Of a stretch of DNA of 58,437 nt, positions 45 to 49,264 are shown in pieces. The position numbers and the translations under genes were made by a program. A model generated the notes under the pieces. That model saw only the letters and a list, made by a program, of their open reading frames with translations, was not told the origin of the DNA and did no database searches. Each line of letters starts with the position of its first letter. Position 1 is the stretch's first letter. Origin of the DNA: a virus; IMG/VR virus record IMGVR_UViG_3300027816_000115, positions 1 through 58,437 of that record; one strand, written 5' to 3'.

Positions 45-59
45 ACACCCGCAGGGTGT
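45..59 (+). other. Small perfect hairpin upstream of the first promoter
   Basis: ACACCC (45-50) and GGGTGT (54-59) form a six-base-pair stem around a GCA triloop, directly upstream of the first promoter element. No T-run follows, so it is not a convincing terminator. It may insulate the promoter from upstream transcription or be part of an RNA from beyond the left edge. Bases 1-44 hold nothing I can identify. Confidence 0.35.
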
Positions 60-106
60 ATAGCACACAGAGCAAACACGGTTTTTTACTGATAATACGT
101 ATGGGC
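56..106 (+). promoter_or_regulatory. Early promoter element P1
   Basis: Copy 1 of the repeated element: AACACG at 75-80, nine bases, TGATAAT at 90-96. The downstream ATGTAA box is degenerate here (ATGGGC). The preceding GTGTATAGCA (56-65) is identical to the sequence before P2 (283-292), so the P1/P2 pair looks like a duplicated block. No substantial open reading frame follows before P2, so P1 may drive a non-coding leader. Confidence 0.55.
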
Positions 107-290
107 CTGACCTTGAAATAGAGTCGGAAGAGTAGACTCCGTCCTACCCGGTGTTTTCGTAGAGATCACCTAACCTACTAAGATTGGAAAAAGGTGACGT
201 TAGCCTACTATTTATTAACTTAAGACCCTAATGTCACACTTTTCTCAAAATCCGTTGGGTCGCCCACGTACTTTACCACATCGTGTATAG
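107..290 (+). other. Non-coding leader with alternative hairpins between P1 and P2
   Basis: About 180 bases without a convincing gene. GAGTC (121-125) pairs with GACTC (135-139). GTGACGTTAG (194-203) pairs with CTAATGTCAC (228-237) with one G-T wobble and is followed by ACTTTTCTC, so it is terminator-like. TCACCT (166-171) can instead pair with AGGTGA (192-197), which overlaps the first arm of that hairpin. The two folds exclude each other, as in an attenuator. The same inverted motif recurs at 8284-8327. An 18-codon frame starting in the second arm (ATG at 231) is probably not a gene. The regulatory reading is inference. Confidence 0.35.
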
Positions 291-336
291 CATACAGTCC
301 GAACACGAGATCATTTTGATAATATATATGTAACCA
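281..336 (+). promoter_or_regulatory. Early promoter element P2
   Basis: Copy 2: AACACG at 302-307, nine-base spacer, TGATAAT at 317-323, then ATGTAAC starting at 328. Upstream GTGTATAGCA matches P1. A 27-codon frame (368-451) follows. Confidence 0.7.
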
Positions 337-367
337 AAAGTAACAAAGTATAAGTAAAATGGTTGAA

Positions 368-451
368 ATGACCATAATTTTAGAGAAATTTAACGTAAGA
401 TGTAGAGAATCAAGGTATTATACCCTCCTTACTATTTTTTCTAACAAATGA
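368..451 (+). CDS. Possible 27-residue early peptide
   Basis: A short frame (starting MTIILEKFN, ending FSNK) lies about 35 bases downstream of P2 and ends just before P3. It is basic and has no recognisable motif. The only support is its position between two promoter copies in a region where every other P-element precedes a gene. It could be untranslated leader sequence. Confidence 0.25.
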   Translation: MTIILEKFNVRCRESRYYTLLTIFSNK

Positions 452-460
452 TTTATCACC

Positions 461-506
461 TTTTACAATCTAGATACGATTGGGTATTGATAATATAAAT
501 GTAAGA
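461..506 (+). promoter_or_regulatory. Early promoter element P3
   Basis: Copy 3: TTTACAATCTAGATACG with its GATACG at 473-478, nine-base spacer, TGATAAT at 488-494, ATGTAA from 499. It precedes the 32-codon and 57-codon frames at 530 and 656. Confidence 0.7.
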
Positions 507-529
507 TTAACAAGCTAATTTAAACGATT

Positions 530-628
530 ATGAAGAATTATTCTAGTGCCTTTAGGGTTGTAGTATTAAAATTGAAATTTGAGTTCTTAGAGGGAGCTAA
601 AAACGCCGCTTGGGCGATGAGAAGATAG
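530..628 (+). CDS. Small early protein, 32 residues
   Basis: The frame begins MKNYSSAFRVV about 25 bases downstream of P3, preceded by an A/T-rich GATTATG start context like other genes here. It is basic, with a central hydrophobic/aromatic stretch and AAWAMRR at the end. I do not recognise it. Its position as the first frame after a promoter favours translation, but the short length leaves real doubt. Confidence 0.35.
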   Translation: MKNYSSAFRVVVLKLKFEFLEGAKNAAWAMRR

Positions 629-655
629 TGTTTAACCATTAAAATGTAGTTAATT

Positions 656-829
656 ATGAAAAGAATAGATTTTGAGACCGATATGGGTAGTGGTTATATA
701 GAGTATATTCACCGAGATGATACTTTTAAGAATGATACATTTGATGTTATAGTGGAGGAGGTATATTCTTTCTATGATGAAGATGATGTTGTTGCGGATA
801 TTGAGAAAAATATTTATAAATACATTTAA
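656..829 (+). CDS. Small acidic early protein, 57 residues
   Basis: It starts MKRIDFETDMGSGY after the TTAATTATG context that recurs at start codons across the window. The protein is strongly acidic, with a run of D/E residues around FYDEDD (about residues 39-44). No family is recognised. Small acidic early proteins are often host-takeover or inhibitor proteins, but nothing here proves that. It lies 12 bases upstream of the next gene in the P3 transcription unit. The opposite-strand frame over this region is a shadow. Confidence 0.6.
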   Translation: MKRIDFETDMGSGYIEYIHRDDTFKNDTFDVIVEEVYSFYDEDDVVADIEKNIYKYI

Positions 830-841
830 AATATAGAAATT

Positions 842-1057
842 ATGACAATGAAAGAATTGTGTGAGTACTCGGAACGTACTCGTAAGTTTAGGAACAATGC
901 CCATTTAGAGTTGGTTCGATCGGAACATGGTGAGATACGTTGTTTCACGGCTAAGGAGAATAAGCAAGTTGTAACTCACGGCAAGAGTGTATTTAGAAAG
1001 GGTAAGACCCATGCTTTTACGAGATTGTGGAACCACTACAATGTACCTATAGTGTAA
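842..1057 (+). CDS. Small basic early protein, 71 residues
   Basis: MTMKELCEYSERTRK opens a basic, hydrophilic protein rich in Arg, Lys and His, with no membrane segment or known motif. The start at 842 fits the AAATTATG context; an ATG two codons later is also possible. It follows the 57-residue gene by 12 bases and ends immediately before P4, so it is likely the last gene of the P3 unit. The basic composition would suit nucleic-acid binding, which is inference only. Confidence 0.6.
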   Translation: MTMKELCEYSERTRKFRNNAHLELVRSEHGEIRCFTAKENKQVVTHGKSVFRKGKTHAFTRLWNHYNVPIV

Positions 1058-1060
1058 TGT

Positions 1061-1105
1061 GTTTACAAGCCGAATACGATTAAGTGTTGATAATATATAT
1101 GTAAC
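1061..1105 (+). promoter_or_regulatory. Early promoter element P4
   Basis: Copy 4: TTTACAAGCCG followed by AATACG at 1073-1078, nine-base spacer, TGATAAT at 1088-1094, ATGTAAC from 1099. It sits 4 bases after the upstream stop codon and sets the start of the next gene at 1122. Confidence 0.75.
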
Positions 1106-1121
1106 AAAAAAATATAATAAT

Positions 1122-1325
1122 ATGAATTTAGATTTTAGAAAATTGAGTATGAGTGACCAACATTTAGCTATGGCTAATTTAATAAGAATTGAAAACGGTT
1201 CCCCTAATTTCTTGGCTTACTTATTTGCTAATGAAAGTTATGATGTGTACGGTTGGTTTAGTTTCGACAAAACAATTGAAGGTTGGGAATATTGGATTAA
1301 CTTAAAATACGAACAAAATGAATAG
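1122..1325 (+). CDS. Early protein of unknown function, 67 residues
   Basis: The frame is open upstream to 1059, but that ATG lies inside P4, so the start MNLDFRKLSM at 1122 (context AATATG, about 17 bases after the ATGTAAC box) is chosen. The sequence includes LSMSDQHLAMANLIRIENGS and a Trp/Tyr-rich end. The C-terminus overlaps the next gene by 8 bases, suggesting translational coupling. No family recognised. Confidence 0.65.
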   Translation: MNLDFRKLSMSDQHLAMANLIRIENGSPNFLAYLFANESYDVYGWFSFDKTIEGWEYWINLKYEQNE

Positions 1326-1584
1326 ATTAGTAAAAAGCGAAAGTGTATATTGGTGTAATGATGATGACCGTTATATACGTGTGTTTAAAGTAGGTATGGA
1401 AGTAGTTGGTATAAACTATATGCAAGGTGATGAGTTAGATTTGTTTGAAGAACGTTATAAAGATATTGACGAAGACTTGACTAACTTCTATAATGCCCTT
1501 AGTCCTTACTTAAATGGTGATACCGAAATTGATCGAATCAACCAAGCAACATGGGCACACTTTGATTATAAAAATAACTATTAA
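1318..1584 (+). CDS. Early protein of unknown function, 88 residues
   Basis: It begins MNRLVKSESVYWCNDDD and is acidic overall (DEDLTNFYNAL near the middle). It overlaps the upstream gene by 8 bases and is followed after 9 bases by the next, in the P4 transcription unit. There is no membrane segment, zinc motif or recognised domain. Confidence 0.65.
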   Translation: MNRLVKSESVYWCNDDDRYIRVFKVGMEVVGINYMQGDELDLFEERYKDIDEDLTNFYNALSPYLNGDTEIDRINQATWAHFDYKNNY

Positions 1585-1593
1585 CCAAATAAT

Positions 1594-1926
1594 ATGGCAA
1601 ATAAAATAACAATGGATTCGGTACATGCTTTTGTAATAGGTAAACCGTTTCGACGTGAAAATATGGATGTTGAAATTGATGGCGATAATGTGTACTTAAA
1701 ATTACACGGTAATATCATTGCCTTACGTTCTAATCTTGATGGTAAAGTTTATATTCGCAATTGCGGTTGGGAAACAAAAACAACTAAGGAGCGGTTGAAT
1801 TGGTTGCTATACACGTACAACTCTCCGTTGAAAATCCGTCAAAAAAATTGGGTGTGGTATCTTGGTGATGAACAATGGGACGGCGATAAAACTTATATAT
1901 ACAAGCCGAGCACGGCCGCTAATTGA
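1594..1926 (+). CDS. Early protein of unknown function, 110 residues
   Basis: MANKITMDSVHAFVIGKPF opens a mixed-charge protein with alternating beta-like segments and many Trp residues towards the C-terminus (WVWYLGDEQWDG). It may be a compact beta fold. I do not recognise it. Its TGA stop (1924-1926) is part of the TGATAAT box of promoter P5, so coding sequence and promoter share bases. Confidence 0.65.
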   Translation: MANKITMDSVHAFVIGKPFRRENMDVEIDGDNVYLKLHGNIIALRSNLDGKVYIRNCGWETKTTKERLNWLLYTYNSPLKIRQKNWVWYLGDEQWDGDKTYIYKPSTAAN

Positions 1927-1943
1927 TAATATAAATGTAACTA
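1898..1943 (+). promoter_or_regulatory. Early promoter element P5 overlapping a stop codon
   Basis: Copy 5: ATACAAGCCG, AGCACG at 1909-1914, nine-base spacer, TGATAAT at 1924-1930, ATGTAAC from 1935. The spacer is unusually G/C-rich (GCCGCT). The upstream gene's TGA stop is embedded in the TGATAAT box. Confidence 0.75.
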
Positions 1944-1955
1944 AAAATAAATAAT

Positions 1956-2147
1956 ATGGGAGTATATCCAGTAACAAAAGAATATAGTGTTGAAGTAGTT
2001 GAAACACTTATTAGAATAGTAACCGTTGAAGCAACGAGTGAAGAACAAGCAATAGAGTTTGTAATGTATGACTATAACAATGCGGAATTAGTATTGGATA
2101 GCGATGACTTTTTTGATGTAGAATTTGAAATTGTAAATAGAGATTAA
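1956..2147 (+). CDS. DpnD/PcfM-like small protein, 63 residues
   Basis: The pattern YSVEVVETLIRIVTVEATSE, then AIEFV and ELVLDSDDFFDVEFE, resembles the C-terminal domain of the DpnD/PcfM family (Pfam DpnD-PcfM), common as stand-alone small proteins in Firmicutes and Bacteroidota plasmids and phages. The family's molecular role is not established. The protein is acidic, 63 residues, the usual size for the lone domain. It is the first gene after P5. Recognition is from memory of the motif, not a search. Confidence 0.6.
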   Translation: MGVYPVTKEYSVEVVETLIRIVTVEATSEEQAIEFVMYDYNNAELVLDSDDFFDVEFEIVNRD

Positions 2148-2148
2148 T

Positions 2149-2271
2149 ATGGAAGAATATAGCGGTTGTTGTGGTGCACCAAGACACCATGTATTTAATG
2201 AACTTTGTGCCGACTGTTTAGAGCATTGTTCCTTTGAAGAAGAATTTGACGAAGATGGATTTACAATCTAA
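2149..2271 (+). CDS. Small zinc-ribbon-like protein, 40 residues
   Basis: The product contains CCGAPRHH near its start and CADCLEHC in the middle, two Cys/His clusters that look like a minimal zinc ribbon, followed by an acidic tail (FEEEFDEDGF). Similar tiny CCGA...CxxC proteins are common in Bacteroidota phages; function unknown. The ATG overlaps the upstream gene's AATATG end region, and the TAA stop lies within promoter P6. Confidence 0.6.
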   Translation: MEEYSGCCGAPRHHVFNELCADCLEHCSFEEEFDEDGFTI

Positions 2272-2303
2272 ACACGATTATAAATTGATAATATAAATGT
2301 AAC
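2258..2303 (+). promoter_or_regulatory. Early promoter element P6
   Basis: Copy 6 and closest to consensus: TTTACAATCTAAACACG with AACACG at 2271-2276, nine-base spacer, TGATAAT at 2286-2292, ATGTAAC from 2297. The upstream zinc-ribbon gene ends inside it at 2271. Confidence 0.8.
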
Positions 2304-2315
2304 AAATAATAAATT

Positions 2316-2483
2316 ATGAGACCACCATGCCCGCCTTTCAGTCCTTGTTGGTGTGAACAAAATCCAACAAACCCAAGATGCTCTGAAACATTACCACTAT
2401 CAAGTGAAGTATTCTCAGCAATAGTGTCTTTGTTAATAATATATGTAGCTCATAGATTTCTTAAAAATAAATTAAAACAATAA
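2316..2483 (+). CDS. Cys/Pro-rich small membrane protein, 55 residues
   Basis: The N-terminus is rich in Pro and Cys (MRPPCPPFSPCWCEQN). One hydrophobic segment (about residues 33-48, FSAIVSLLIIYVAHRF) and a Lys-rich C-terminus follow, the layout of a single-pass membrane protein with a Cys-rich outside or luminal head. It is the first gene after P6. No family recognised; a membrane-targeted early function is inference. Confidence 0.55.
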   Translation: MRPPCPPFSPCWCEQNPTNPRCSETLPLSSEVFSAIVSLLIIYVAHRFLKNKLKQ

Positions 2484-2495
2484 ATAAAAATTAAT

Positions 2496-2705
2496 ATGGT
2501 AAAATTAAAATATCGTTTTGAAGAAATATTAGTTGCTTATAAAACTTATGGCAATTATAGAATGGCTACTCGTGAAGACCCCGAAGAATATCCTGAAGTA
2601 GTAATTTATGAGGTTTATTTTAACAATGTAAATATATTACCAATACTCAGTGAAACCGATCAAGATGAAATTTATGAACTATTAAATGAACACTTATATG
2701 GATAA
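2496..2705 (+). CDS. Early protein of unknown function, 69 residues
   Basis: MVKLKYRFEEILVAYKTYG opens an acidic protein with two predicted beta-rich halves and a helical end (ETDQDEIYELLNEHLYG). It overlaps the following 51-residue gene by 8 bases. There is no known domain. It belongs to the P6 transcription unit. Confidence 0.6.
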   Translation: MVKLKYRFEEILVAYKTYGNYRMATREDPEEYPEVVIYEVYFNNVNILPILSETDQDEIYELLNEHLYG

Positions 2706-2853
2706 TGCAGAAAACTTTAATGAATGGATGCGAGACGTAGTAAAAAGTTATTACTATTCTGATAACGAAAAAATGCTCGCTGCTTTTAACACAATGACAG
2801 ATAAAAATGGAAGAAACTATCAACCACCGCGCGTACCTAAAAGCATTAGCTAA
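2698..2853 (+). CDS. Early protein of unknown function, 51 residues
   Basis: The frame MDNAENFNEWMRDVV to VPKSIS begins within the last codons of the upstream gene and overlaps the next gene by 47 bases in another frame. The long overlap is unusual for this genome, so either this frame or the next gene's chosen start may be wrong. The product is small, helical-looking and mixed in charge. Confidence 0.45.
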   Translation: MDNAENFNEWMRDVVKSYYYSDNEKMLAAFNTMTDKNGRNYQPPRVPKSIS

Positions 2854-3013
2854 GGTTACTACACTTGCTTTTGATATTAAAAAATGCAAAGAAGATTTAA
2901 GATGGGATACCGGTAACGGTCCTTTATCAACAGAACAATTAGAATGTTGTCTACGTTCTGCTCAACGTGAATATGATATTTGGAATTATATACTTAAAAT
3001 TACAGAAAAATGA
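2807..3013 (+). CDS. Early helical protein, 68 residues
   Basis: MEETINHRAYLKALAKV opens a Lys/Glu-rich protein, probably all-helical, with a CxxxxLR and LECCLRSAQ segment. It overlaps the upstream frame by 47 bases and the downstream start (3010) by 4 bases (ATGA coupling), which supports its end point. Function unknown. Confidence 0.6.
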   Translation: MEETINHRAYLKALAKVTTLAFDIKKCKEDLRWDTGNGPLSTEQLECCLRSAQREYDIWNYILKITEK

Positions 3014-3189
3014 AAAAAATTAAATTTTTAAAGAACAACTTAATCCGTATCAACGGCGTGCTATACACACCATATTGTGTTGGCGATTTACCACAAACTT
3101 TCGGCTTTATAACAAACGAAGAAAAAGATCAAGTAGGTGTGTACAACTGGTTTAACTATAAAGGTTTTACCTATATTATAAAACCATAA
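3010..3189 (+). CDS. Early protein of unknown function, 59 residues
   Basis: It starts MKKIKFLKNNLIRING at an ATGA overlap with the upstream stop. It is basic at the N-terminus and aromatic-rich towards the end (VYNWFNYKGFTYIIKP), consistent with a small beta fold. I do not recognise it. It belongs to the P6 transcription unit and lies 9 bases before the next gene. Confidence 0.6.
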   Translation: MKKIKFLKNNLIRINGVLYTPYCVGDLPQTFGFITNEEKDQVGVYNWFNYKGFTYIIKP

Positions 3190-3198
3190 AATAACTAT

Positions 3199-3423
3199 AT
3201 GGATAAATTAGTAAAATTAACTGATATTAAAGATGGCGTAGTATATTATACTGACACTGTCAAAGACTGTGAAGTAATACTAAACAAAATATTAAATAAA
3301 ACTATATATTTTGATATAGTCTCCGAAAGTGATGGTGATTATATACTTGAACCCGACGGCACTATAGCCTTTCCACTTCAAGAAGATTTAGAATTTATTG
3401 AAAAAAATACCGATACAGTCTAA
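3199..3423 (+). CDS. Acidic early protein, 74 residues
   Basis: MDKLVKLTDIKDGVVYY opens a strongly acidic product with FDIVSESDGDYILEPDG in the middle. The stop codon lies inside promoter P7, repeating the stop-in-promoter arrangement of P5 and P6. There is no recognised family. Small acidic early proteins can be DNA-mimic or inhibitor proteins, but that is speculation here. Confidence 0.6.
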   Translation: MDKLVKLTDIKDGVVYYTDTVKDCEVILNKILNKTIYFDIVSESDGDYILEPDGTIAFPLQEDLEFIEKNTDTV

Positions 3424-3456
3424 ACACGATAACAAATTGATAATATTAATGTAATT
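3410..3456 (+). promoter_or_regulatory. Early promoter element P7
   Basis: Copy 7: ATACAGTCTAAACACG with AACACG at 3423-3428, nine-base spacer, TGATAAT at 3438-3444, ATGTAA from 3449. It overlaps the end of the upstream gene. Confidence 0.75.
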
Positions 3457-3470
3457 AAAAAATAAACAAA

Positions 3471-3800
3471 ATGAGTGAAGAAAAAACAACTATTTCATTA
3501 GAGCAAGCGGTTAGTCGCTTTAATGATTTTCAAAAAAACGGATTGAACACTGTAACAATCGAGGATGTATTAACTATATTAAACCAAGTACAAAATGGAT
3601 ATAGTGAAGATGTAATATCTAAAACATTAGAAGCTGTACTTTCAAATTTTGAATATGATGAATTTGTAAGTTGTGAACCCGAATTGCACGGCAGCTATGG
3701 CGATAGTTATTCACTTGAAATGAATACTAGCTTTGATGATAGAGAATTTAAAAGATGCTTTACCATGGATTTTATGGGACATTTAGAAACAGAAGAATAA
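3471..3800 (+). CDS. Early protein of unknown function, 109 residues
   Basis: MSEEKTTISLEQAVSRF opens an acidic protein. The first half looks helical (FNDFQKNG, EDVLTILNQVQNG); the second half is rich in Tyr/Ser/Glu (HGSYGDSYSLEMN) and beta-like. It is the first gene after P7. The last base of its TAA stop is shared with the next gene's ATG (TAATG), indicating coupled translation. No family recognised. Confidence 0.65.
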   Translation: MSEEKTTISLEQAVSRFNDFQKNGLNTVTIEDVLTILNQVQNGYSEDVISKTLEAVLSNFEYDEFVSCEPELHGSYGDSYSLEMNTSFDDREFKRCFTMDFMGHLETEE

Positions 3801-4051
3801 TGAAAGCAAAACAAATTAAAGATTATATAGAAGAATGTTTACAGCAAACGCCAAGGCATGATTGTGTTGCTTTGGCGAAGGCCATAACAAAAGCAAGTAA
3901 ACAATTTGATCAAAATGAATTTGATATGATGCACCTATTATTAGAAAATCAACCAATAGGCAATTACACACATAGCTATGGTTTTCATACCGCATACGGC
4001 AGAGAACTTATAAACACCATGCAAGATTATTATTATAAATTTAACAAATAA
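3800..4051 (+). CDS. Early protein of unknown function, 83 residues
   Basis: The frame is open to 3755 but the TAATG overlap at 3798-3802 marks MKAKQIKDYIEECLQ as the start. The product is helical, with HDCVALAKAITKASKQF and a Tyr-rich tail (DYYYKFNK). Unknown function; second gene of the P7 unit. Confidence 0.65.
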   Translation: MKAKQIKDYIEECLQQTPRHDCVALAKAITKASKQFDQNEFDMMHLLLENQPIGNYTHSYGFHTAYGRELINTMQDYYYKFNK

Positions 4052-4063
4052 AAAAATTAGAAT

Positions 4064-4339
4064 ATGAATACAATTAAAACAGTAGAAGACTTTAAAAAGT
4101 TTGTAGGCAATGAAGGCAAATTATTTAGTGTAACATTCACTAAACTTGACGGATCTAAACGTAAAATGGTCGCAAGACTAGACGTAAGAAAGTTCCTTAA
4201 AGGAGGGCAGTTATTATATAATCCTAGATCACGTAACAATATTATAGTATTTTCAATGCAAGAAGGTGATTACCGTACAATTAACATTGATAGATTATTA
4301 AAAGTAAAAGCATATAATACTACCATTCAAGTAGGGTAG
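4064..4339 (+). CDS. WYL_2-like (DUF2693) Sm-fold protein, 91 residues
   Basis: Residues about 15-85 follow the pattern of the WYL_2/DUF2693 family: FSVTFTKLDGSKRKMVARL, a basic loop, IIVFSMQEGDYRTINIDRLLKVK. The family is a short SH3/Sm-like beta barrel abundant in Bacteroidota phages and plasmids, thought to bind nucleic acid or ligands. The length is typical. It is the third gene after P7 and is followed directly by P8. Assignment is from the DGS-R...R.I..D motif only. Confidence 0.5.
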   Translation: MNTIKTVEDFKKFVGNEGKLFSVTFTKLDGSKRKMVARLDVRKFLKGGQLLYNPRSRNNIIVFSMQEGDYRTINIDRLLKVKAYNTTIQVG

Positions 4340-4376
4340 TTACAAACATAACACGAATATTAACTGATAATAAATT
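4339..4376 (+). promoter_or_regulatory. Early promoter element P8
   Basis: Copy 8: GTTACAAACATAACACG with AACACG at 4350-4355, nine-base spacer, TGATAAT at 4365-4371. The downstream ATGTAAC box is degenerate (TTAAAC). It precedes the GP88-family gene. Confidence 0.65.
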
Positions 4377-4388
4377 AAACTAAACAAA

Positions 4389-4994
4389 ATGAATTTACTA
4401 ACTCAAAACTCTAAGCTTCGTAAAACTAGTAAGCTACTTGGTGTAAAAGTTTTTAACTTTGGTATACCAGCATATAAGTCAGCAAGCGGTAAATTAACTT
4501 GCCCATTTGCTGATGAATGTGTTAAATTCTGTTATGCACAGAAAGGCGCATATATTTGGTCTAATGTTAAACCTGCATTTGAAAAGCGATATGAGCTAAC
4601 TCGAAGTGACGAGTTTGTTAGCAAAATGTCAGACGAGTTATTTAAGAAGCGCCCTGACTATGTAAGAATACATGACTCCGGTGATTACTACAGCAAAGCA
4701 TACCTACAAAAATGGATTGATATTGCTAATCTATTCCCAGAGATTAAGTTCTATAGTTATACTAACTCTGTAGCAATGTTAAAAGAAGCTAATTTACCAT
4801 CTAACTTTGATGTAATCTTTAGTGACTCTGGTAAACAAAAAAATATGATTGATGTAATCAATGATCGTCACACTAAAATCTTTTCTTCTAAGCAAGCTCT
4901 TGAAGATGCTGGCTATGTTAATGCTAGCGAATTAGATTTGTATGCAACTAAATGGTTTAGTAATAACAATAAAGTTGGTTTGGTATTTCATTGA
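4389..4994 (+). CDS. GP88-family (Gene product 88) protein, 201 residues
   Basis: This matches the phage GP88 family: CPFADECVKFCYAQKGAYIW (about residues 37-56) with its Cys cluster, RIHDSGDYYSKAYLQKW (about 93-109) and the closing FHxx-type end KVGLVFH. GP88 proteins are widespread in actinobacteriophages and other phages; their biochemical role is unknown, though the Cys cluster could bind metal. Length is within the family range but the Cys-rich C-terminal segment of longer members is missing. It is the only gene of the P8 unit and ends two bases before a candidate folded RNA. Confidence 0.75.
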   Translation: MNLLTQNSKLRKTSKLLGVKVFNFGIPAYKSASGKLTCPFADECVKFCYAQKGAYIWSNVKPAFEKRYELTRSDEFVSKMSDELFKKRPDYVRIHDSGDYYSKAYLQKWIDIANLFPEIKFYSYTNSVAMLKEANLPSNFDVIFSDSGKQKNMIDVINDRHTKIFSSKQALEDAGYVNASELDLYATKWFSNNNKVGLVFH

Positions 4995-4996
4995 TA

Positions 4997-5147
4997 TATG
5001 GCACTGTAAGTGCTATACACTGTTGATCTCTGGGACTATGTAAATTTACTCCGCTAAGTTCGGTTGTAGTCGAATTGCAAATAAAGAATTTAACCGGTTT
5101 GCAGATCAACATATCGTCAACACTGGCAAGACGTAAAATTTGCCATA
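4997..5147 (+). ncRNA. Candidate multibranched structured RNA
   Basis: There is no open frame here but many nested complementary segments: TATGGCA (4997-5003) with TGCCATA (5141-5147) closes the domain; TGTTGATCT (5021-5029) with AGATCAACA (5103-5111); GACTA (5034-5038) with TAGTC (5067-5071), enclosing CCG/CGG (5051-5063); TGCAAA (5076-5081) with TTTGCA (5098-5103); CGTC (5115-5118) with GACG (5130-5133). A competing 8-bp hairpin, ATGGCACT/AGTGCTAT (4998-5016), would disrupt the closing helix, which could make it a switch. It matches no RNA family I know. It lies between the GP88 gene and tRNA-like genes. Confidence 0.5.
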
Positions 5148-5196
5148 GCTAGCTAAGCTGTGAAAAGCGCCGGAACTTATAATCCGCTAGAAGCTA

Positions 5197-5301
5197 AGTC
5201 AGGTGGCGGAATTGGTAGACGCAACCCCGAACTGCTTGTAAAAGTGGGTAATTAGATAATCGTAAGCTAATTATACAGGTTCGAATCCTGTCCTGACTAC
5301 A
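5197..5301 (+). tRNA. tRNA-like gene 1 (class II, Leu-like D arm, abnormal anticodon arm)
   Basis: Acceptor AGTCAGG (5197-5203) pairs perfectly with CCTGACT (5292-5298). T8 is followed by a Leu-type D arm (GCG-GAATTGGTAGA-CGC). A variable arm AATTAG/CTAATT (5250-5255/5267-5272) marks a class II tRNA. The T arm ACAGG-TTCGAAT-CCTGT is perfect. The anticodon region is abnormal: ACCC (5224-5227) pairs with GGGT (5246-5249) around about 18 bases, with an inner ACT/AGT and loop GCTTGTAAA, so no standard 5-bp stem and 7-base loop forms. The anticodon cannot be read with confidence. CCA is not encoded (ACA instead). Confidence 0.6.
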
Positions 5302-5318
5302 ATAAAAGAGTAAATAGT

Positions 5319-5417
5319 ATGAAATTAGAAGAACAAATCGGTGTTTTTATAGTTATAGGTTTTGTGATGATTCTATTTATTATAGGTGTTGCAATTTTTG
5401 ATAAAGATAAACATTAA
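5319..5417 (+). CDS. Single-span mini membrane protein, 32 residues
   Basis: MKLEEQIGVFIVIGFVM leads into a hydrophobic core of about 20 residues (8-27) and ends FDKDKH. This is the layout of a tiny inner-membrane peptide. It lies between the two tRNA-like genes, with GTATG as start context. It could be an early membrane-active peptide or a holin-like protein. No homologue recognised, and small size limits confidence. Confidence 0.45.
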   Translation: MKLEEQIGVFIVIGFVMILFIIGVAIFDKDKH

Positions 5418-5425
5418 CGAAACAT

Positions 5426-5526
5426 AGTCAGGTGGCGGAGAGGAAACGCTAACTATGAATAGTCTGAGGAATGGAACATAGTCCTATACTCCAATGACCG
5501 CAGGTTCGAATCCTGTCCTGACTACA
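5426..5526 (+). tRNA. tRNA-like gene 2 (same acceptor stem and T arm, abnormal anticodon arm)
   Basis: Acceptor AGTCAGG (5426-5432)/CCTGACT (5517-5523) is identical to tRNA-like gene 1. The T arm GCAGG-TTCGAAT-CCTGT differs by one base. A D arm GCG-GAGAGGAAA-CGC is present. Between D and T arms lie 49 bases with no normal anticodon stem-loop; the best helix is ACTATG (5452-5457) with CATAGT (5477-5482) around 19 bases. AACATAGTC occurs twice (5422-5430 and 5475-5483). It may be a tRNA mimic, a degraded tRNA or an unusual class II tRNA. Confidence 0.45.
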
Positions 5527-5547
5527 AATTATAATAAAAAATAATAT

Positions 5548-5595
5548 TCGTTTACAGTCTGAACACGAATAACAATAGATAATAATAATGTAACA
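5548..5595 (+). promoter_or_regulatory. Early promoter element P9
   Basis: Copy 9: TTTACAGTCTGAACACG with AACACG at 5562-5567, nine-base spacer, AGATAAT (one mismatch) at 5577-5583, ATGTAAC from 5588. It is the last recognisable copy and precedes the gene run starting at 5610. Confidence 0.7.
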
Positions 5596-8273: not shown

Positions 8274-8327
8274 TTGACAAATAGTGACGTCAGCTAATTA
8301 AGTTATTAAAATAGCAAGCTAATGTCA
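8274..8327 (+). promoter_or_regulatory. Inverted motif and possible promoter at the start of the HTH gene
   Basis: TTGACA (8274-8279) is a possible -35 box but no clean -10 follows. GTGACGTCAGC (8284-8294) and GCTAATGTCAT (8318-8328) form an imperfect inverted repeat 35 bases apart. A near copy with 34-base spacing lies at 194-237. The second arm contains the start codon of the 8322 gene. It could be an operator, or an RNA hairpin that controls translation. Confidence 0.4.
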
Positions 8328-8942
8328 TACGATAGAAATTTAGAATACTTAAATAAAAAAAGAGTGATATATAGACGCGGACCAATAAATGATAAGCCAA
8401 CAGAAGAATTTAGTTGGGGTAGTTATTATGAAGAAGGTACAAAAGAATGTTATGAACTATTTCGTAGTAGTGCAAAGATAACTACGTATAAATCATTACG
8501 CTGGCATTTATACGTTCTTTGGTATCTAAATAATAATCTAGATCAAAATGCTTTTGAAGATATTGTTAGGTATGTATGTGATAAAAAAAATGGGTTTATA
8601 ACTTTTACAGTTAGCGAACAATTATTACAGAACATGATGTATGATATATCTCTTAAAGACCTTGAAGAACCACCATATAATAAAACAAGAAAGATAATCT
8701 TTAAAGACAACAGTGGGCTTACATTAAACGAGAAGCTAAGCATAGTTGGTAAAATGATTGGTAAAACTAAAAAGGTTAATGAGTCTGATATATACGATGT
8801 TATGCTATACATGCACGATGTCGGACAAAAAATAACAATTAAAAAAATTGCAGAGCATTTTGGTTGTGCAATTAGAACAATACATAGAAACATGAGTAAT
8901 GAATTAAAAAAAGAAAAAGAAATCCTTAATCAAGAATTATGA
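8322..8942 (+). CDS. HTH-containing DNA-binding protein, 206 residues
   Basis: The C-terminal quarter carries a helix-turn-helix: VGQKITIKKIAEHFGCAIRT (about residues 165-184), followed by IHRNMSNELKKEKE. The rest is mixed with aromatic residues (LRWHLYVLWYLNNN) and no known enzyme motif. It is probably a phage transcription or replication regulator. It overlaps the next gene by 4 bases, and the sigma factor is the second gene downstream. The inverted motif in its leader could be its own operator, which is inference. Confidence 0.6.
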   Translation: MSYDRNLEYLNKKRVIYRRGPINDKPTEEFSWGSYYEEGTKECYELFRSSAKITTYKSLRWHLYVLWYLNNNLDQNAFEDIVRYVCDKKNGFITFTVSEQLLQNMMYDISLKDLEEPPYNKTRKIIFKDNSGLTLNEKLSIVGKMIGKTKKVNESDIYDVMLYMHDVGQKITIKKIAEHFGCAIRTIHRNMSNELKKEKEILNQEL

Positions 8943-9141: not shown

Positions 9142-9906
9142 ATGAAAAGCTACAACATACCAAATTATATAAGGTACAAAGAAGATATAGCTCGTGTTAA
9201 TAAGGATAATAACGAAATAGATTTTAAATCATATTCTAGAGATCAGCTTATAAGTAAGTTTTTACCATTAGTAGAAAATATAGCTAAAAAGTTTTCAACA
9301 ACAACGCAAGCTTCTGGTATATTAGATATTACAGATCTTATTCAATATGGTTCAATTGGATTAGTATTAGCTGTTGACAAAATAGAATGGAGCACAATAA
9401 GCTCTTCTGTTGATCAAGAAAAAACAATTAAGTCGTTTCTATCAAAAAGAATTAAAGGCTCGATTAGAAGGGCTATAGATATTAATAGAGGCGCTATTAA
9501 AATTCCAGAGCATAAGCTAAATGAAATTAGAAAAGATAATGGTCAAGATCATCAAATGGCTGCATTGTTTTTTAATTCTATATTTCTTAGTATTGATGAA
9601 CAAATGAGCGATGAAGACGATGAGAATATGTTATACCAAATACCGGATAGAGCAGAGCCGTATAACATTGATAAAATGAATAGGTTCCTTAAAGAGTTAT
9701 TAGAAAAACATTTAACATATACGGAATATCATGTATTAAGTTTAAGTTATGGATTAGATGGCGATAAATATCCAGCTAATGCAATAGCAGATTTTTTAGG
9801 TATTGAAGGAGCAAGCGCTTATATTAGAATTTCAGAAATTAAGAAGCAAGCAATCGCTAAATTAATTGCTAACGTTGATTCCTCACAAGTCATTGATTAC
9901 CTATAA
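9142..9906 (+). CDS. Sigma-70 family RNA polymerase sigma factor, 254 residues
   Basis: Region 2 is visible: FLPLVENIAKKF, then DLIQYGSIGLVLAVDK and FLSKRIKGSIRRAID (about residues 35-115). Region 4 follows at LTYTEYHVLSLSYGLDG with the HTH AIADFLGIEGASAYIRIS (about 190-240). Region 1 is absent and region 3 is replaced by an acidic linker (DEQMSDEDDENM). It should bind host core RNA polymerase and direct it to phage promoters, possibly middle or late genes. It may be linked to the P-elements, although those are upstream of it. Length fits phage and sporulation-type sigma factors. Confidence 0.85.
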   Translation: MKSYNIPNYIRYKEDIARVNKDNNEIDFKSYSRDQLISKFLPLVENIAKKFSTTTQASGILDITDLIQYGSIGLVLAVDKIEWSTISSSVDQEKTIKSFLSKRIKGSIRRAIDINRGAIKIPEHKLNEIRKDNGQDHQMAALFFNSIFLSIDEQMSDEDDENMLYQIPDRAEPYNIDKMNRFLKELLEKHLTYTEYHVLSLSYGLDGDKYPANAIADFLGIEGASAYIRISEIKKQAIAKLIANVDSSQVIDYL

Positions 9907-19723: not shown

Positions 19724-22700
19724 TTAATCACCGCCAATTTTTCTTTTCTTTTTCTTAGGAAAAACACCTGTTTCATAATAAATTCCTCTCTCCTCCGGCG
19801 TCATAGCGTCTAAAATTTTATCCTTAGCACTTCCTTTTTTTGATTTTCTTTCAGCCTCTTCCATGTAAAAAATTTCTCGTTCTTCTGGTGTCATTTTATC
19901 TAAAGCATCCTCCCTTTCTTTTTTGTTTTTAGCTTTAGTTTCTATTGATTTTATAATACCTTCTTCTTTTCTTTTTACTTTAGCAGCGGCTTTAATTAAT
20001 TCATTTTCTTCATTCTTAACATTTAATTCCCATTCTTTCCATCCTAGCATTAAAGCAGCTCTTTGTAATTTTGTATTACGAGAATCCAAAGCTTCTGAAA
20101 CATTATCTATTTTTTCAACAAGACGATCTAATGGTACATTTGTAGTTGCTACAGCAATGTTACCAACTATTGAATAATTAGGACTAAGATTAAGTCTACC
20201 ATCTCTTGTAATTTCCCATCCTCTTTCCTCTATTACATCTTTCTCAAACTTTTTAATTCTATGTACACCATATAATTTTCTAGCTTTTGAACTTATAGGA
20301 GGAGATATGCCGGCAACAGCTAATATTGTATAAGCATGATCGGCAAACATTTCTCTTTGCTCTTGTTTATTATATTCCATTACGGCATTTTTAATAGTAG
20401 ATATTAATGCACCTGTTATACCAGACCCTCTTAATACTGTATCAGCCATTCCGTTTAGAATATTAATAGTTTTATCTTCTTGCTTTTTCTTTAACTTGTC
20501 ATACTCAGCTCTTTGTTCCTTTGACATTTTAGCTAAAACTTCTTCTTCCTCATCTTCAAAAGGTAAAAACAATGCCGATTGCAAAGCCGAGAATATAAAG
20601 TTTTGTAATGCTCCATAATATAATATTTTTGACATATTAGTTTTCCAGTCTCCACGCTTATTAACTAAGTCTAAAGTAGCTTTCTTTATCAATCTATTAT
20701 ATTGTAAAGGAGTATTAGCAAAAGCTAATACAAGACGTCCTAATGAGGTTGTTTGCTGTTTTGATATATACAATGGATCAGCGGACTGCATGGATTGATC
20801 AGAGATCATTGAAAAATCTAACCAAGCTTTATCTTCTGCTTCTTTTTTTGTATTTATCAAATTGCCATCTTCATCTGCTTGTTTTAAATAAGTATTAACT
20901 CTATTTCTATAAAATGCAGCACCACCAATTGCAATAGAAAAACTATCTGCAGCTTGTGTAGGTGTAAACCCTATTTTTTGTAGATATGAAAGAATACCTC
21001 TAGCTTTATTTTTAGCACTATTAGCAGCATTAGCAATCTCAGCTTGTGTAACATCTGCTTTTAATCCAGCTCTTCGTTCTCTCATTTTATCTGAGTTAAT
21101 AATCATAGCGAAATCTGTCCAATATTGCTTTTGATTTGCAAATGCTTTTGCCGCCATTAAAGGATTATTATCATTCCAGTTTAAATAGTTGATTGAAGAT
21201 ATTGTTTGCAATATAGCGGAACGAACATTAAAGAACATGATTGCAGCAGTAGATCCGTTTATCCAGTTCATCCAACGATTAGTTAGAGCGTCAGTGCCTT
21301 CAGGTCTATTCTTACCATTCTTCATTCTATATAAAGCATCCTCAAGAGCTATCCTTACATTCGTTCCATATATAGCTTGTATCTTGTTTAAATTTTCAGT
21401 CGAGAAAATAGCATTGGCATTTTCTATAAATTCAGCCAACCATTGTTTTCTACCATCACCTTCTGTAATATTATGTAGATCAGAAATAATAGTTTCGCTA
21501 TCCCATGTATCAGAAGGTTCCATCCAGCCACCGTCTTGTCTACCTGCTATAGATAAGGCTTCGGCAAAAGAAAGTAAATTGGGATCGGTTTTAACAAGAT
21601 ATACTAATTTATTTTTATCTTTCCTGTTTAATCCCGGTATTTCTATATTATTCTTATTCCATAAATATACCCTTATAGCTTGATCATAAGTAAACTGCTT
21701 ATCAGGAGTAAGTTTTTCTAATTTAGATTTAATATCCGGAAATTCAGATAACAATGCTTTGTATTCTTTTTTTATAGATTGCCTAACAGAATCTAAGGCA
21801 TTTATTCCTTTTACATAAGGTATAACTAAATTTTTATCAAAAAATTGCTGGTCTAATTCTCCTTGTTTGCCTTTGCCTGAAAACATGTAGGTTGTTAATC
21901 CCCTAAAGTCATCTGCAGATGGCGGTACGAAAAATGATAAGTTTCTTACTTTTGCTCCTTTTCTTTTTGCAACAACATCAGAAAATTTCTCATAAGAAGG
22001 TATGGCTTTATTGCGTTCAAGCATATCATTAAATTCGTAGTCTAAAGACTTACTAAATTTAGGTCTTGCTTTCCATTTAGTATCATTATTAATCCATTCA
22101 TTTAATTGTTTTTCTGCAGATTTAATAGTCTCTAAATTAAGAGCATTATTTACCGCTGCCATTAAAGGTCCACCTTCGTTTTCACGATCCTCAATTATAT
22201 CAAAAGCATAATCAACAGAACTAACCATTCCGTCTATTGTTTTATCTTCAAGAATACCCCACCATTCCTCTATAGATTTATTAAGATCATTTAATACATC
22301 AAAAGAAGTTTCCGCATCTATTCTTCTAATATTATTTGCAGTAATATAGTCAGATACTACCGTAATACCTTTGTTATCTTTGTTAAAGGAGTTTAAATTA
22401 TTTTCTAAAGACTTAGAGTGCATGCTGTTTCTTTTTCTTTGCATAACAGCATTGACCTTGTCGTTTATATCCTTTAAACTTAATTTAGAAGCTATTTTAT
22501 CAATATCCTTAGCTGCTTTTTTATTTATATAAAAATAAATTCTAGGTCTTAAATAACCATTCTTTTCTATTTTTAATTCAACTTGCGCAGTAATAATATC
22601 GGTATCAGTTATTTCATATTTTTCTAAAAAATCAGCTCCAAAATAATCTGTTAAAGAAGTTCCAATTACTAATAAATCGTTACTAAAAGCTTTATTATTA

Positions 22701-37829: not shown

Positions 37830-37849
37830 CCATATATTAGTATTACGTA

Positions 37850-38635
37850 TTATTGAAGTTTTTTCTCAATAGATTGGAAGATTTCAATACCTTCATCTGT
37901 TTTGAAAAATGCAGCCATAGCCGAATACGGGTTTTCATCAAAAGGTACAGTCATTAATTTTTTACCATTAGCTGCCCATTTGAAATCACGTTGGTCTGGT
38001 GATAGCTTTATAATGTTAGCTTCGCATGCTTTGATAGCAAAATTACGTAGCTGAATATTTTCATCATTAACCAAATCTAAAAATAGACCCGGGTTCCTTT
38101 TAGCAAAAATTAATAAATCTCTTTTAATTTCTTTAGAAGTCATCTTAGATACTTTTGAACCTAATTCAACACGCAAAATTGCTTCTGCTTGATCGATGTC
38201 CATTGATGATGCCGCCGTCATAGCTTCTAATTCTTTTTCTAAATCATCTAATTCATTAACAGCAATTTTAATTGCATCAAATTCTTTATATTTTTTATTA
38301 AGTAAAGGATGATAAAGAGATAATAATTTTTGTAAGTTTTGTTTTTCTTTTGGTACTGTTAGCACTCCTTCTTTAAACACAATATGACCTAGAGTAGCTT
38401 CTCCTTTTTGTTCATCCACAAATGGTGAATTTTGATTTGTAGCATACCTTAGTTCTCTTTGTTCTTGTGCAGCCACATCAAACCATAATAAAGGAAATCT
38501 TCTTGAGTGTCTTGATGATATTGTATAAGTTAATGGACTATATGGTCCTAATAATAGATATGTTCTATCTTTAATCTCCCAAGTATCCTTGGTAGTTTGT
38601 TTCTCTTTTTGTGAGTTTGTATTTTCTTTTGACAT
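37850..38635 (-). CDS. Capsid-associated protein of unknown role, 261 residues
   Basis: It starts MSKENTNSQKEKQTTKD (disordered, charged), then TYLLLGPYSPLTYTISSRHSRRFPLLWFD, a helical Glu/Leu-rich middle, and NGKKLMTVPFDENPYSAMAAFFKTDEG near the end. The same layout occurs beside MCP genes in other phages of marine bacteria, where it may be a head decoration or cargo protein. The name is by position. Confidence 0.5.
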   Translation of the reverse strand: MSKENTNSQKEKQTTKDTWEIKDRTYLLLGPYSPLTYTISSRHSRRFPLLWFDVAAQEQRELRYATNQNSPFVDEQKGEATLGHIVFKEGVLTVPKEKQNLQKLLSLYHPLLNKKYKEFDAIKIAVNELDDLEKELEAMTAASSMDIDQAEAILRVELGSKVSKMTSKEIKRDLLIFAKRNPGLFLDLVNDENIQLRNFAIKACEANIIKLSPDQRDFKWAANGKKLMTVPFDENPYSAMAAFFKTDEGIEIFQSIEKKLQ

Positions 38636-48908: not shown

Positions 48909-48949
48909 AATAAATTAAATTAAAGTTATAATATTATTATTACGCAAAT

Positions 48950-49264
48950 TTATTGTTTTTTATAAGCTTCCATCTCCCATGGTAGGTTTTTGGCACCCTC
49001 ATTCATATTAGAGCGAGAGTACCTTTTTCCTTTCCAATAAACATTGTTTTCATCGTATCCTAAATCGCCTCTTTTTATTTGATCTACATGTACCATCTCA
49101 TGTTCAACCGTTTTATTCTTTTTTAGCTCAATAGGAGATACATTCTTATTTATTAGTATTGTACCATTTGATTGCGCCATTCCGAGAATATTGTCATCCA
49201 TGTCCTTACTATATATTGGCGTATTATGCATATTATAAGGAGGACCTGACATTTTAAATGCCAT
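48950..49264 (-). CDS. HExxH metallopeptidase-like protein, 104 residues
   Basis: KTVEHEMVHVDQIKRGDLGYDENNVYWKGK contains HEMVH, followed by WEMEAYKKQ with a possible third Glu ligand. The gene product resembles small phage proteins of zincin type with no signal peptide. Substrate unknown: it could be a prohead or virion protease or a lytic accessory. It lies next to late structural genes. Confidence 0.6.
   Translation of the reverse strand: MAFKMSGPPYNMHNTPIYSKDMDDNILGMAQSNGTILINKNVSPIELKKNKTVEHEMVHVDQIKRGDLGYDENNVYWKGKRYSRSNMNEGAKNLPWEMEAYKKQ

What the first reader, a model, noticed from the sequence alone, without database searches (positions are those of the whole stretch)
56..5595. Nine copies of a long, rigidly spaced promoter-like element
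In the first 5.6 kb, nine + strand copies show AACACG (or GATACG/AATACG/AGCACG), exactly nine bases, then TGATAAT (AGATAAT once). AACACG-type boxes start at 75, 302, 473, 1073, 1909, 2271, 3423, 4350 and 5562. TTTACA-like bases precede most. I counted the spacing for each copy and it never varies. Each copy stands before a gene or gene cluster, and none was noticed elsewhere. This differs from the usual Bacteroidota promoter pattern (TTG with TAnnTTTG), so it may be read by a modified host polymerase or by an RNA polymerase encoded outside the window.
Basis: seen in the sequence. Interest (0 to 1): 0.75.

Follow-up and report, generated by a model that had tools for sequence, protein, structure and literature searches.

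The report
Phage promoters matching its sigma factor
A virus that probably infects flavobacteria carries nine near-identical on-switches in front of its first genes; they belong to a promoter type shared by many related uncultured viruses, unlike the bacterium's own promoters, and found together with a viral sigma factor that probably makes the host's RNA polymerase read them.

Summary
The nine copies are real. A matrix trained without the window and its close relatives ranks exactly these nine first, with nothing else positive. The element is longer than described: TTACAAnC-nn-AAYACGA-N8-TTGATAATATAAATGTAAC, about 43 bp, rigid spacing throughout. It recurs 210 times in 21 related phage contigs, on the early-gene strand, 0 times in reversed sequence. 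It lies about 20 nt upstream of start codons, with a purine at the expected +1 in 251 of 251 sites: a promoter.

The likely reader is encoded inside the window: a sigma-70-family protein (9142-9906). All 16 near-complete element-bearing contigs profiled have it, and 45 of 48 loci picked only by this sigma carry 4-13 elements. The cultured relative elemo and the uncultured MW202828, both without the sigma, lack the element and use host-type TAHHTTTG promoters instead. A sister group keeps the GATAAT half but has another upstream half, CACGGACTTA-N15-GATAAT.

Promoter: about 0.95. Read by host core polymerase plus this phage sigma: about 0.7, with no experiment. Unsolved: what reads the AAYACGA box, and how transcription starts before sigma is made. 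New variant of a known kind.

The parts
65..107 (+). Element 1 (atypical: CACACAGAGCAAACACG-N9-TGATAATACGTATGGG); predicted +1 = G103; drives a non-coding RNA
292..334 (+). Element 2; predicted +1 = G330; ATG 359 (30 codons)
463..505 (+). Element 3; predicted +1 = G501; ATG 530 (32 codons)
1063..1105 (+). Element 4; predicted +1 = G1101; ATG 1122
1899..1941 (+). Element 5; predicted +1 = G1937; ATG 1956
2261..2303 (+). Element 6 (best match to consensus, score 60.5); predicted +1 = G2299; ATG 2316
3413..3455 (+). Element 7; predicted +1 = G3451; ATG 3471
4340..4382 (+). Element 8 (downstream part diverged, no TGTAAC); predicted +1 = A4378; ATG 4389 (GP88-family gene)
5552..5594 (+). Element 9 (AGATAAT); predicted +1 = G5590; ATG 5610; last element before the gene run that contains P0003 and the sigma factor
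9142..9906 (+). P0001, sigma-70-family protein (254 aa; regions 2, 3.0, 3.2 and 4, no region 1): probable reader of the elements
   Evidence: PHROG 351 'RNA polymerase sigma factor' E=9e-19, 22/22 family members; PDB profile hits SigA 4e-9 and FliA 6e-9; Foldseek of the AF2 model to SigA 4g7h_F E=8.5e-7, prob 1.00
8322..8942 (+). P0003, 206 aa, N-terminal domain without known relatives plus C-terminal helix-turn-helix; almost always just upstream of the sigma gene; possible co-regulator
196..235 (+). Imperfect inverted repeat GACGTTAG-N24-CTAATGTC in the tail of the presumed non-coding transcript from element 1
8286..8326 (+). Same inverted repeat; its right arm contains the start codon of P0003 (CTA-ATG-TC); possible autoregulatory site
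48931..48961 (-). Late-strand promoter-like motif AAAAA-N13-GTAATAATAATAT
37834..37864 (-). Late-strand promoter-like motif AAAAA-N13-GTAATACTAATAT

Best explanation
The nine elements are promoters for the phage's first gene block. They are read by the bacterium's core RNA polymerase carrying the phage's own sigma factor P0001 (9142-9906) instead of the host primary sigma. With +1 set at the conserved purine (position +28 from AAYACG), the element resolves into a -35 box TTACAAnCT (-38 to -30), a spacer box AAYACGA (-28 to -22), a -10 box GATAAT (-12 to -7) and a conserved start region ATATAAATG(+1)TAAC. Sigma region 2 reads GATAAT and region 4 probably reads the -35 box. AAYACGA is either also read by this holoenzyme or by an unidentified helper. 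Because the sigma gene lies in the gene run that starts at element 9, expression is probably self-reinforcing after a start-up step not visible in the sequence. Shown: the elements, their spacing, strand and position, conservation, the sigma homology, and the association between sigma and element. Inferred: that they are promoters, that P0001 binds them, which region reads which box, and the timing.
For: Promoter: 210 sites in 21 contigs, one strand per contig (one contig has two weak end hits), none in reversed sequence; 155/210 within 60 nt of an ATG ORF against 16% for random positions, and 4/210 inside an ORF against 54%; purine at +1 in 251/251 and leader median 20 nt, IQR 18-24. Sigma as reader: motif-blind test, 45 of 48 loci chosen by sigma alone carry 4-13 elements on the sigma strand; 393 elements in the 80 loci, none on the other strand, none in controls; sigma present in 16/16 near-complete class A and 10/10 class B contigs and in 0 of 2 outgroups. 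Relatives without the sigma (elemo, MW202828, phi19:3, Calle_1) have no element. Elemo and MW202828 are enriched in host-type TAHHTTTG boxes between genes (18 vs 5 and 13 vs 1 reversed), sigma-positive contigs are not (109 vs 122; Fisher p = 0.001 for the pooled groups). The sigma has FliA-like -10-reading residues (RIKGSI vs RIKGAI in A. aeolicus FliA), and the FliA -10 is GCCGATAA (PMC2859248). A sister group keeps GATAATATA-n-ATG in the same register with a different upstream half, as expected if the same sigma reads the -10.
Against: No transcript data. Co-occurrence is within one phage lineage, so other core genes co-occur equally (31 families shared by A and B contigs). An apparent link between sigma residue 118 and the base before GATAAT was not specific when P0003 was used as control. 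No sigma region 4.2 residue tracks the switch of the upstream half, which occurs at two places in the sigma tree. Absolutely rigid spacing is unusual for sigma-70-family promoters. Phage sigmas known so far mostly serve middle or late genes, and here a separate late-strand motif exists that could be the true target of P0001. A sigma made from these promoters cannot start them.
Confidence: 0.7

Rival explanations
1. The elements are early promoters read by the host polymerase with a host sigma (primary or alternative); the phage sigma P0001 serves only the late strand, as in phage 7-11.
For: Early genes of most phages use host sigma, and the start-up problem disappears. A distinct late-strand motif AAAAA-N13-GTRATAATAATA exists in the same contigs (44 copies, 1 on the other strand, 0 reversed), and phage 7-11 sigma serves late promoters only (PMC8948821).
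Against: Elements lack the host -7 box TAHHTTTG (PMC6847099). Elemo and MW202828, relatives without P0001, do have such boxes. The late motif is also absent from the relatives without sigma and shares an [AG]ATAAT core. In one genome for each of 84,980 species a strict form of the element turned up in 9 stretches, 4 of them on two phage-like contigs and 5 apparently coding coincidences, so no host regulon with this promoter was seen.
Confidence: 0.15
2. The elements are promoters of a phage RNA polymerase, injected with the DNA as in crAss-like phages and N4, or encoded in a missing part of the genome.
For: Rigid spacing is typical of dedicated polymerases; the phage is distantly crAss-related (muzzle domain), and N4 and P23-45 carry virion RNA polymerases (PMC4496689 and PMC10770324, abstracts; crAss-like phages from memory).
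Against: The 2713-aa virion-type protein has no RNA polymerase match in Pfam, PHROGs or PDB sequences, and its sigma-like stretch fails HHalign. A GATAAT -10 box 7 nt before a purine is sigma-70-like.
Confidence: 0.07
3. The elements need sigma P0001 plus a second DNA-binding phage protein (P0003 or another) that reads AAYACGA, like T4 MotA with sigma-70. This is a refinement of the best explanation, not an exclusive alternative.
For: AAYACGA sits where sigma rarely reads bases; it is absent from class B while sigma region 4.2 is unchanged; P0003 is an HTH protein next to sigma in 75/80 loci.
Against: P0003 is equally present in class B contigs, and its own inverted-repeat site at its start codon looks like a different target. 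No A-specific DNA-binding gene was found.
Confidence: 0.3
4. Not promoters but binding or processing sites (replication iterons, antitermination or leader RNA elements).
For: Many copies, long conserved sequence, all in one region.
Against: Fixed orientation and about 20-nt distance to start codons, copies in front of many unrelated genes, downstream TGTAA kept in only 138/251, purine at +1 in every copy.
Confidence: 0.04

Closest known systems
Phage 7-11 / phiEco32 sigma factors (SaPh711_gp47, phi32_gp36) and their promoters (PMC8948821, PMC4331800)
   Same: A phage-encoded sigma redirects host core polymerase to a repeated phage-specific motif; 7-11 gp47 also has region 4 and a bipartite motif (GTAAtg-16-aCTA); start sites 6-9 bp from the -10-type element.
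   Different: There the sigma serves middle or late genes and host sigma-70 serves early genes; here the motif stands before the early-type gene block, has four boxes over 43 bp, occurs up to 15 times per genome, and host-type promoters seem depleted.
Sigma-28 / FliA promoters (TAAAGTTT-N11-GCCGATAA)
   Same: GATAA core at -10; sigma P0001 shares RIKGAI-type residues with FliA in the -10-reading helix.
   Different: Different -35 sequence and spacing, extra AAYACGA box; P0001 keeps a SigA-like region 3.0 (IPEH) and matches SigA equally well.
Bacteroidota sigma-ABfr promoters (TTTG / TAHHTTTG)
   Same: Same probable host group, A-rich leaders without Shine-Dalgarno.
   Different: No TAHHTTTG; TATAAATG agrees with it in only 6 of 8 positions and the T-8/T-7 bases are mostly A; the strongest block is the upstream GATAAT.
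T4 middle promoters (MotA box + -10) and T4 late promoters (gp55, TATAAATA)
   Same: Fixed upstream box plus -10; TATAAATG resembles TATAAATA (from memory).
   Different: 43-bp multi-box architecture; MotA, AsiA and gp55 homologs were not specifically searched for.
crAss-like, N4 and P23-45 virion RNA polymerase promoters
   Same: Dedicated early promoters with fixed geometry in related or comparable phages.
   Different: No RNA polymerase found here; a sigma factor is present instead.

Membership tests
Promoters of a phage-encoded sigma-70-family factor | Phage encodes a recognisable sigma with regions 2 and 4 | tested here: met
Promoters of a phage-encoded sigma-70-family factor | Repeated phage-specific -10/-35-like motif upstream of phage genes in fixed orientation | tested here: met
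Promoters of a phage-encoded sigma-70-family factor | Motif and sigma occur together and are absent together | tested here: met
   limited to one phage lineage
Promoters of a phage-encoded sigma-70-family factor | Sigma directs core polymerase to the motif in vitro or in vivo | not testable with these tools
   needs biochemistry
Bacteroidota sigma-ABfr promoters | -7 element TAHHTTTG | tested here: not met
Canonical sigma-70 promoters | TTGACA / TATAAT with a 16-18 bp spacer that tolerates variation | tested here: not met
   spacing invariant; consensus differs; outside the elements TTGACA-N16-18-TATAAT has 0 matches in intergenic DNA
Sigma-28 (FliA) promoters | TAAAGTTT-N11-GCCGATAA | tested here: not met
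   only the GATAA core shared
Promoters of a virion or phage RNA polymerase | RNA polymerase encoded by the phage | tested here: inconclusive
   no match in the largest and other searched window proteins; most small proteins not searched, contig may be incomplete

The most novel reading that the evidence does not exclude
A large lineage of uncultured flavobacterial phages has left the host's promoter code entirely: even its first genes are read by a phage sigma factor, which must then enter the cell with the virion or be primed another way, and its early promoters are modular, with interchangeable upstream halves (AAYACGA class or CACGGACTT class) joined to one -10 half. A virion-delivered sigma factor would be a new way to start infection.
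Probability: 0.15. Interest if true: 0.85.

Novelty: new variant of a known kind. Interest (0 to 1): 0.6.

Why it matters
It pairs a phage sigma factor with its probable promoter in an abundant, almost uncultured phage group (at least 394 stretches of viral contigs encode a relative of the sigma), gives exact start-site predictions, and suggests that this lineage abandoned the host's unusual Bacteroidota promoters. If P0001 works with Flavobacterium core polymerase it would also give an orthogonal promoter-sigma pair for a phylum where standard E. coli promoters fail.

Tried and rejected
(1) Giant protein 19724-27865 as RNA polymerase or injected sigma: a stretch 'FDPSRNNSLYGYINAQYINRMRAAL' looked like sigma region 2, but HHalign against the sigma family gave probability 0.7% and database searches found nothing. 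(2) Sigma residue 118 covarying with the base before GATAAT: strong in 23 contigs but no longer specific in 56 loci with P0003 as control; withdrawn. (3) TTTG-N19-TAnnTTTG enrichment in the contigs: largely caused by one conserved coding sequence (FFVEKDRLNMFVVQRSGD-like). (4) Hits in bacterial genomes: 5 of 9 read as the end of a reading frame (LQSEYE..LII, read by eye) rather than promoters, the other 4 are on two phage-like contigs. (5) Gene present in class A and absent from class B as reader of AAYACGA: only small early proteins of unknown function were found. (6) P0003 fold: confident AF2 model (pLDDT 88) but no PDB match below E 0.38. (7) RNA structure of the element-1 transcript: no fold better than shuffles. 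(8) Literature search for this motif: nothing found, in an open-access library only.
Full report
OBSERVATION. To test them without circularity, a position matrix was trained on 219 sites from other contigs, leaving out the window and its nearest relatives. The nine positions come out as the nine best in the window on both strands (scores 60.5 to 8.5), the next best is -3.9, and the best score per dinucleotide shuffle averaged -7.0, never above 13.6. Copy 75 is weak by score but conserved in six contigs in front of the same non-coding RNA.

THE FULL ELEMENT. Scanning the window and 20 related contigs found 210 copies and none in reversed sequence. The consensus is cTTACAAnCtnAAYACGA-N8-TTGATAATATAAATGTAAC, 45 bits. 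Four boxes have fixed distances: TTACA-5-AAYACG-9-TGATAAT-5-TGTAA. For AAYACG to TGATAAT there are 126 matches at 9 and none at 5-8 or 10-13. A model-free gapped-word search of intergenic DNA returns the same element as its top signal. GATAAT is present in 245 of 251 sites.

WHY A PROMOTER. All copies in a contig lie on one strand, that of the early-type genes (one contig, G072, has two weak hits at its ends on the other strand). 155 of 210 are within 60 nt of an ATG ORF (random positions 16%) and 4 of 210 lie inside an ORF (random 54%). Seven nt after GATAAT is a purine in 251 of 251 sites, followed by an A-rich leader with median 20 nt to ATG. In copies that precede a non-coding RNA the same position is followed directly by the conserved RNA sequence. 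The transcription start itself is inferred, not measured. 'Early' is inferred from gene content and position, not from timing data.

WHO READS IT. The window encodes P0001, a sigma-70-family protein: PHROG sigma family E=9e-19, all 22 family members match; Pfam region 2 in 21 of 22 and region 4 in 17 of 22; PDB profile matches SigA and FliA; the AF2 model matches SigA chains, E=8.5e-7. Its residues in the -10-reading helix resemble FliA (RIKGSI / RIKGAI), whose -10 is GCCGATAA (PMC2859248).

Association was tested from both sides. Of 50 records checked (44 picked by the motif), 40 encode P0001; several of the rest are visibly incomplete. In the reverse, motif-blind direction, 80 loci were picked by sigma sequence alone: 45 of the 48 with at least 8 kb upstream carry 4-13 elements on the sigma strand; the 80 loci hold 393 elements, none on the other strand or in controls. 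The cultured relatives elemo, phi19:3 and Calle_1 and the uncultured MW202828 have neither sigma nor element.

THE HOST PROMOTER CODE. Flavobacterium promoters have TAHHTTTG at -12 to -5 (PMC6847099). In intergenic DNA elemo has 18 such boxes against 5 in reversed sequence and MW202828 13 against 1; sigma-positive contigs have 109 against 122. phi19:3 and Calle_1 show little enrichment (14 vs 12, 15 vs 10), so the contrast rests mainly on the two closest sigma-free relatives. The sigma lineage also has a different late-strand motif, AAAAA-N13-GTRATAATAATA, 44 copies in 19 contigs, 1 on the other strand, 0 reversed, absent from the four relatives; it shares an [AG]ATAAT core, so the same sigma might read both.

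A NATURAL EXPERIMENT. Two of the three loci with sigma but no element led to a second promoter class: CACGGACTTA-N15-GATAATAT, 86 sites in the contigs fetched, none in controls, spacing again rigid (48 of 48 at N16 counted from CACGGACTT). The GATAAT half is in the same register and nearly identical; the upstream half differs, sharing ACnnACT with class A. All ten near-complete class B contigs carry the sigma. The switch happened at two places in the sigma tree, and no residue of sigma region 4.2 follows it. The third locus (L327, contig G085) has two class A copies elsewhere in its contig.

WHAT IS NOT SHOWN. No transcript data were available for these uncultured phages. Association in one lineage cannot by itself tell sigma from other core genes. 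The first covariation signal did not survive a control and is withdrawn. If P0001 reads its own upstream promoters, something else must start the cycle: basal host transcription, an unrecognised host-type promoter, or sigma carried in the particle.

COMPARISON. The nearest experimentally known systems are phages phiEco32 and 7-11, whose sigma factors redirect host core polymerase to phage motifs (PMC8948821). There the sigma serves middle or late genes and host sigma-70 serves early genes. Here the motif stands in front of the early-type block, with more and more rigidly spaced boxes. Membership in 'promoters of a phage-encoded sigma' is supported on every feature that could be tested; direct binding could not be tested.

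ASSESSMENT. Promoter about 0.95; read by host core polymerase plus P0001 about 0.7; help from another protein for AAYACGA about 0.3 (compatible with the former). New variant of a known kind.

Noticed in passing
196-235 and 8286-8326 (+): Second repeated element: imperfect inverted repeat GACRYTAG-N23-26-CTAATGTC, 42 copies in sigma-lineage contigs, 0 in reversed sequence. In 18 of 25 contigs one copy sits at the P0003 start, usually with the start codon inside the right arm; others lie in non-coding early DNA like decoys. Suggests autoregulation of P0003 at DNA or RNA level.
   Followed up: partly
103-150 (+): Conserved non-coding RNA start GGGYCTGRCYYTGAAATA..GTCGRAAGAGTAGACTCCGTCCTAC directly after element 1, in six contigs; no Rfam match and no significant fold.
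   Followed up: partly
48931-48961 and 37834-37864 (-): Late-strand promoter-like motif AAAAA-N13-GTRATAATAATA at up to four unrelated gene starts per genome, incl. upstream of a GroEL-length gene in relatives.
   Followed up: partly
L359, L372, L381-L414: Sister phages use another early promoter class, CACGGACTTA-N15-GATAATAT, with the same sigma family.
   Followed up: yes
5197-5299 and about 5427-5525 (+): A tRNA with a long variable arm (Rfam 40.9 bits; ARAGORN finds none) and a second tRNA-like repeat with the same ends that no model recognises; in some relatives a sequence ending CCTGACTAC directly precedes an element.
   Followed up: partly
4996-5196 (+): 201-nt apparently non-coding stretch between the GP88-family gene and the tRNA that folds slightly better than shuffles (z -1.4).
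   Followed up: no
19724-27865 (-): 2713-aa protein with an HEFLH zincin-like motif and a sigma-region-2-like stretch, with homologs across the lineage; not recognised by Pfam, PHROGs or PDB.
   Followed up: partly
L227-L231 (contig G050): The 93-kb contig G050 also contains genes of an unrelated phage (Phage_portal, Terminase_3, Phage_capsid), with several host-type TAHHTTTG boxes in front of genes there; chimera or two phages joined.
   Followed up: partly
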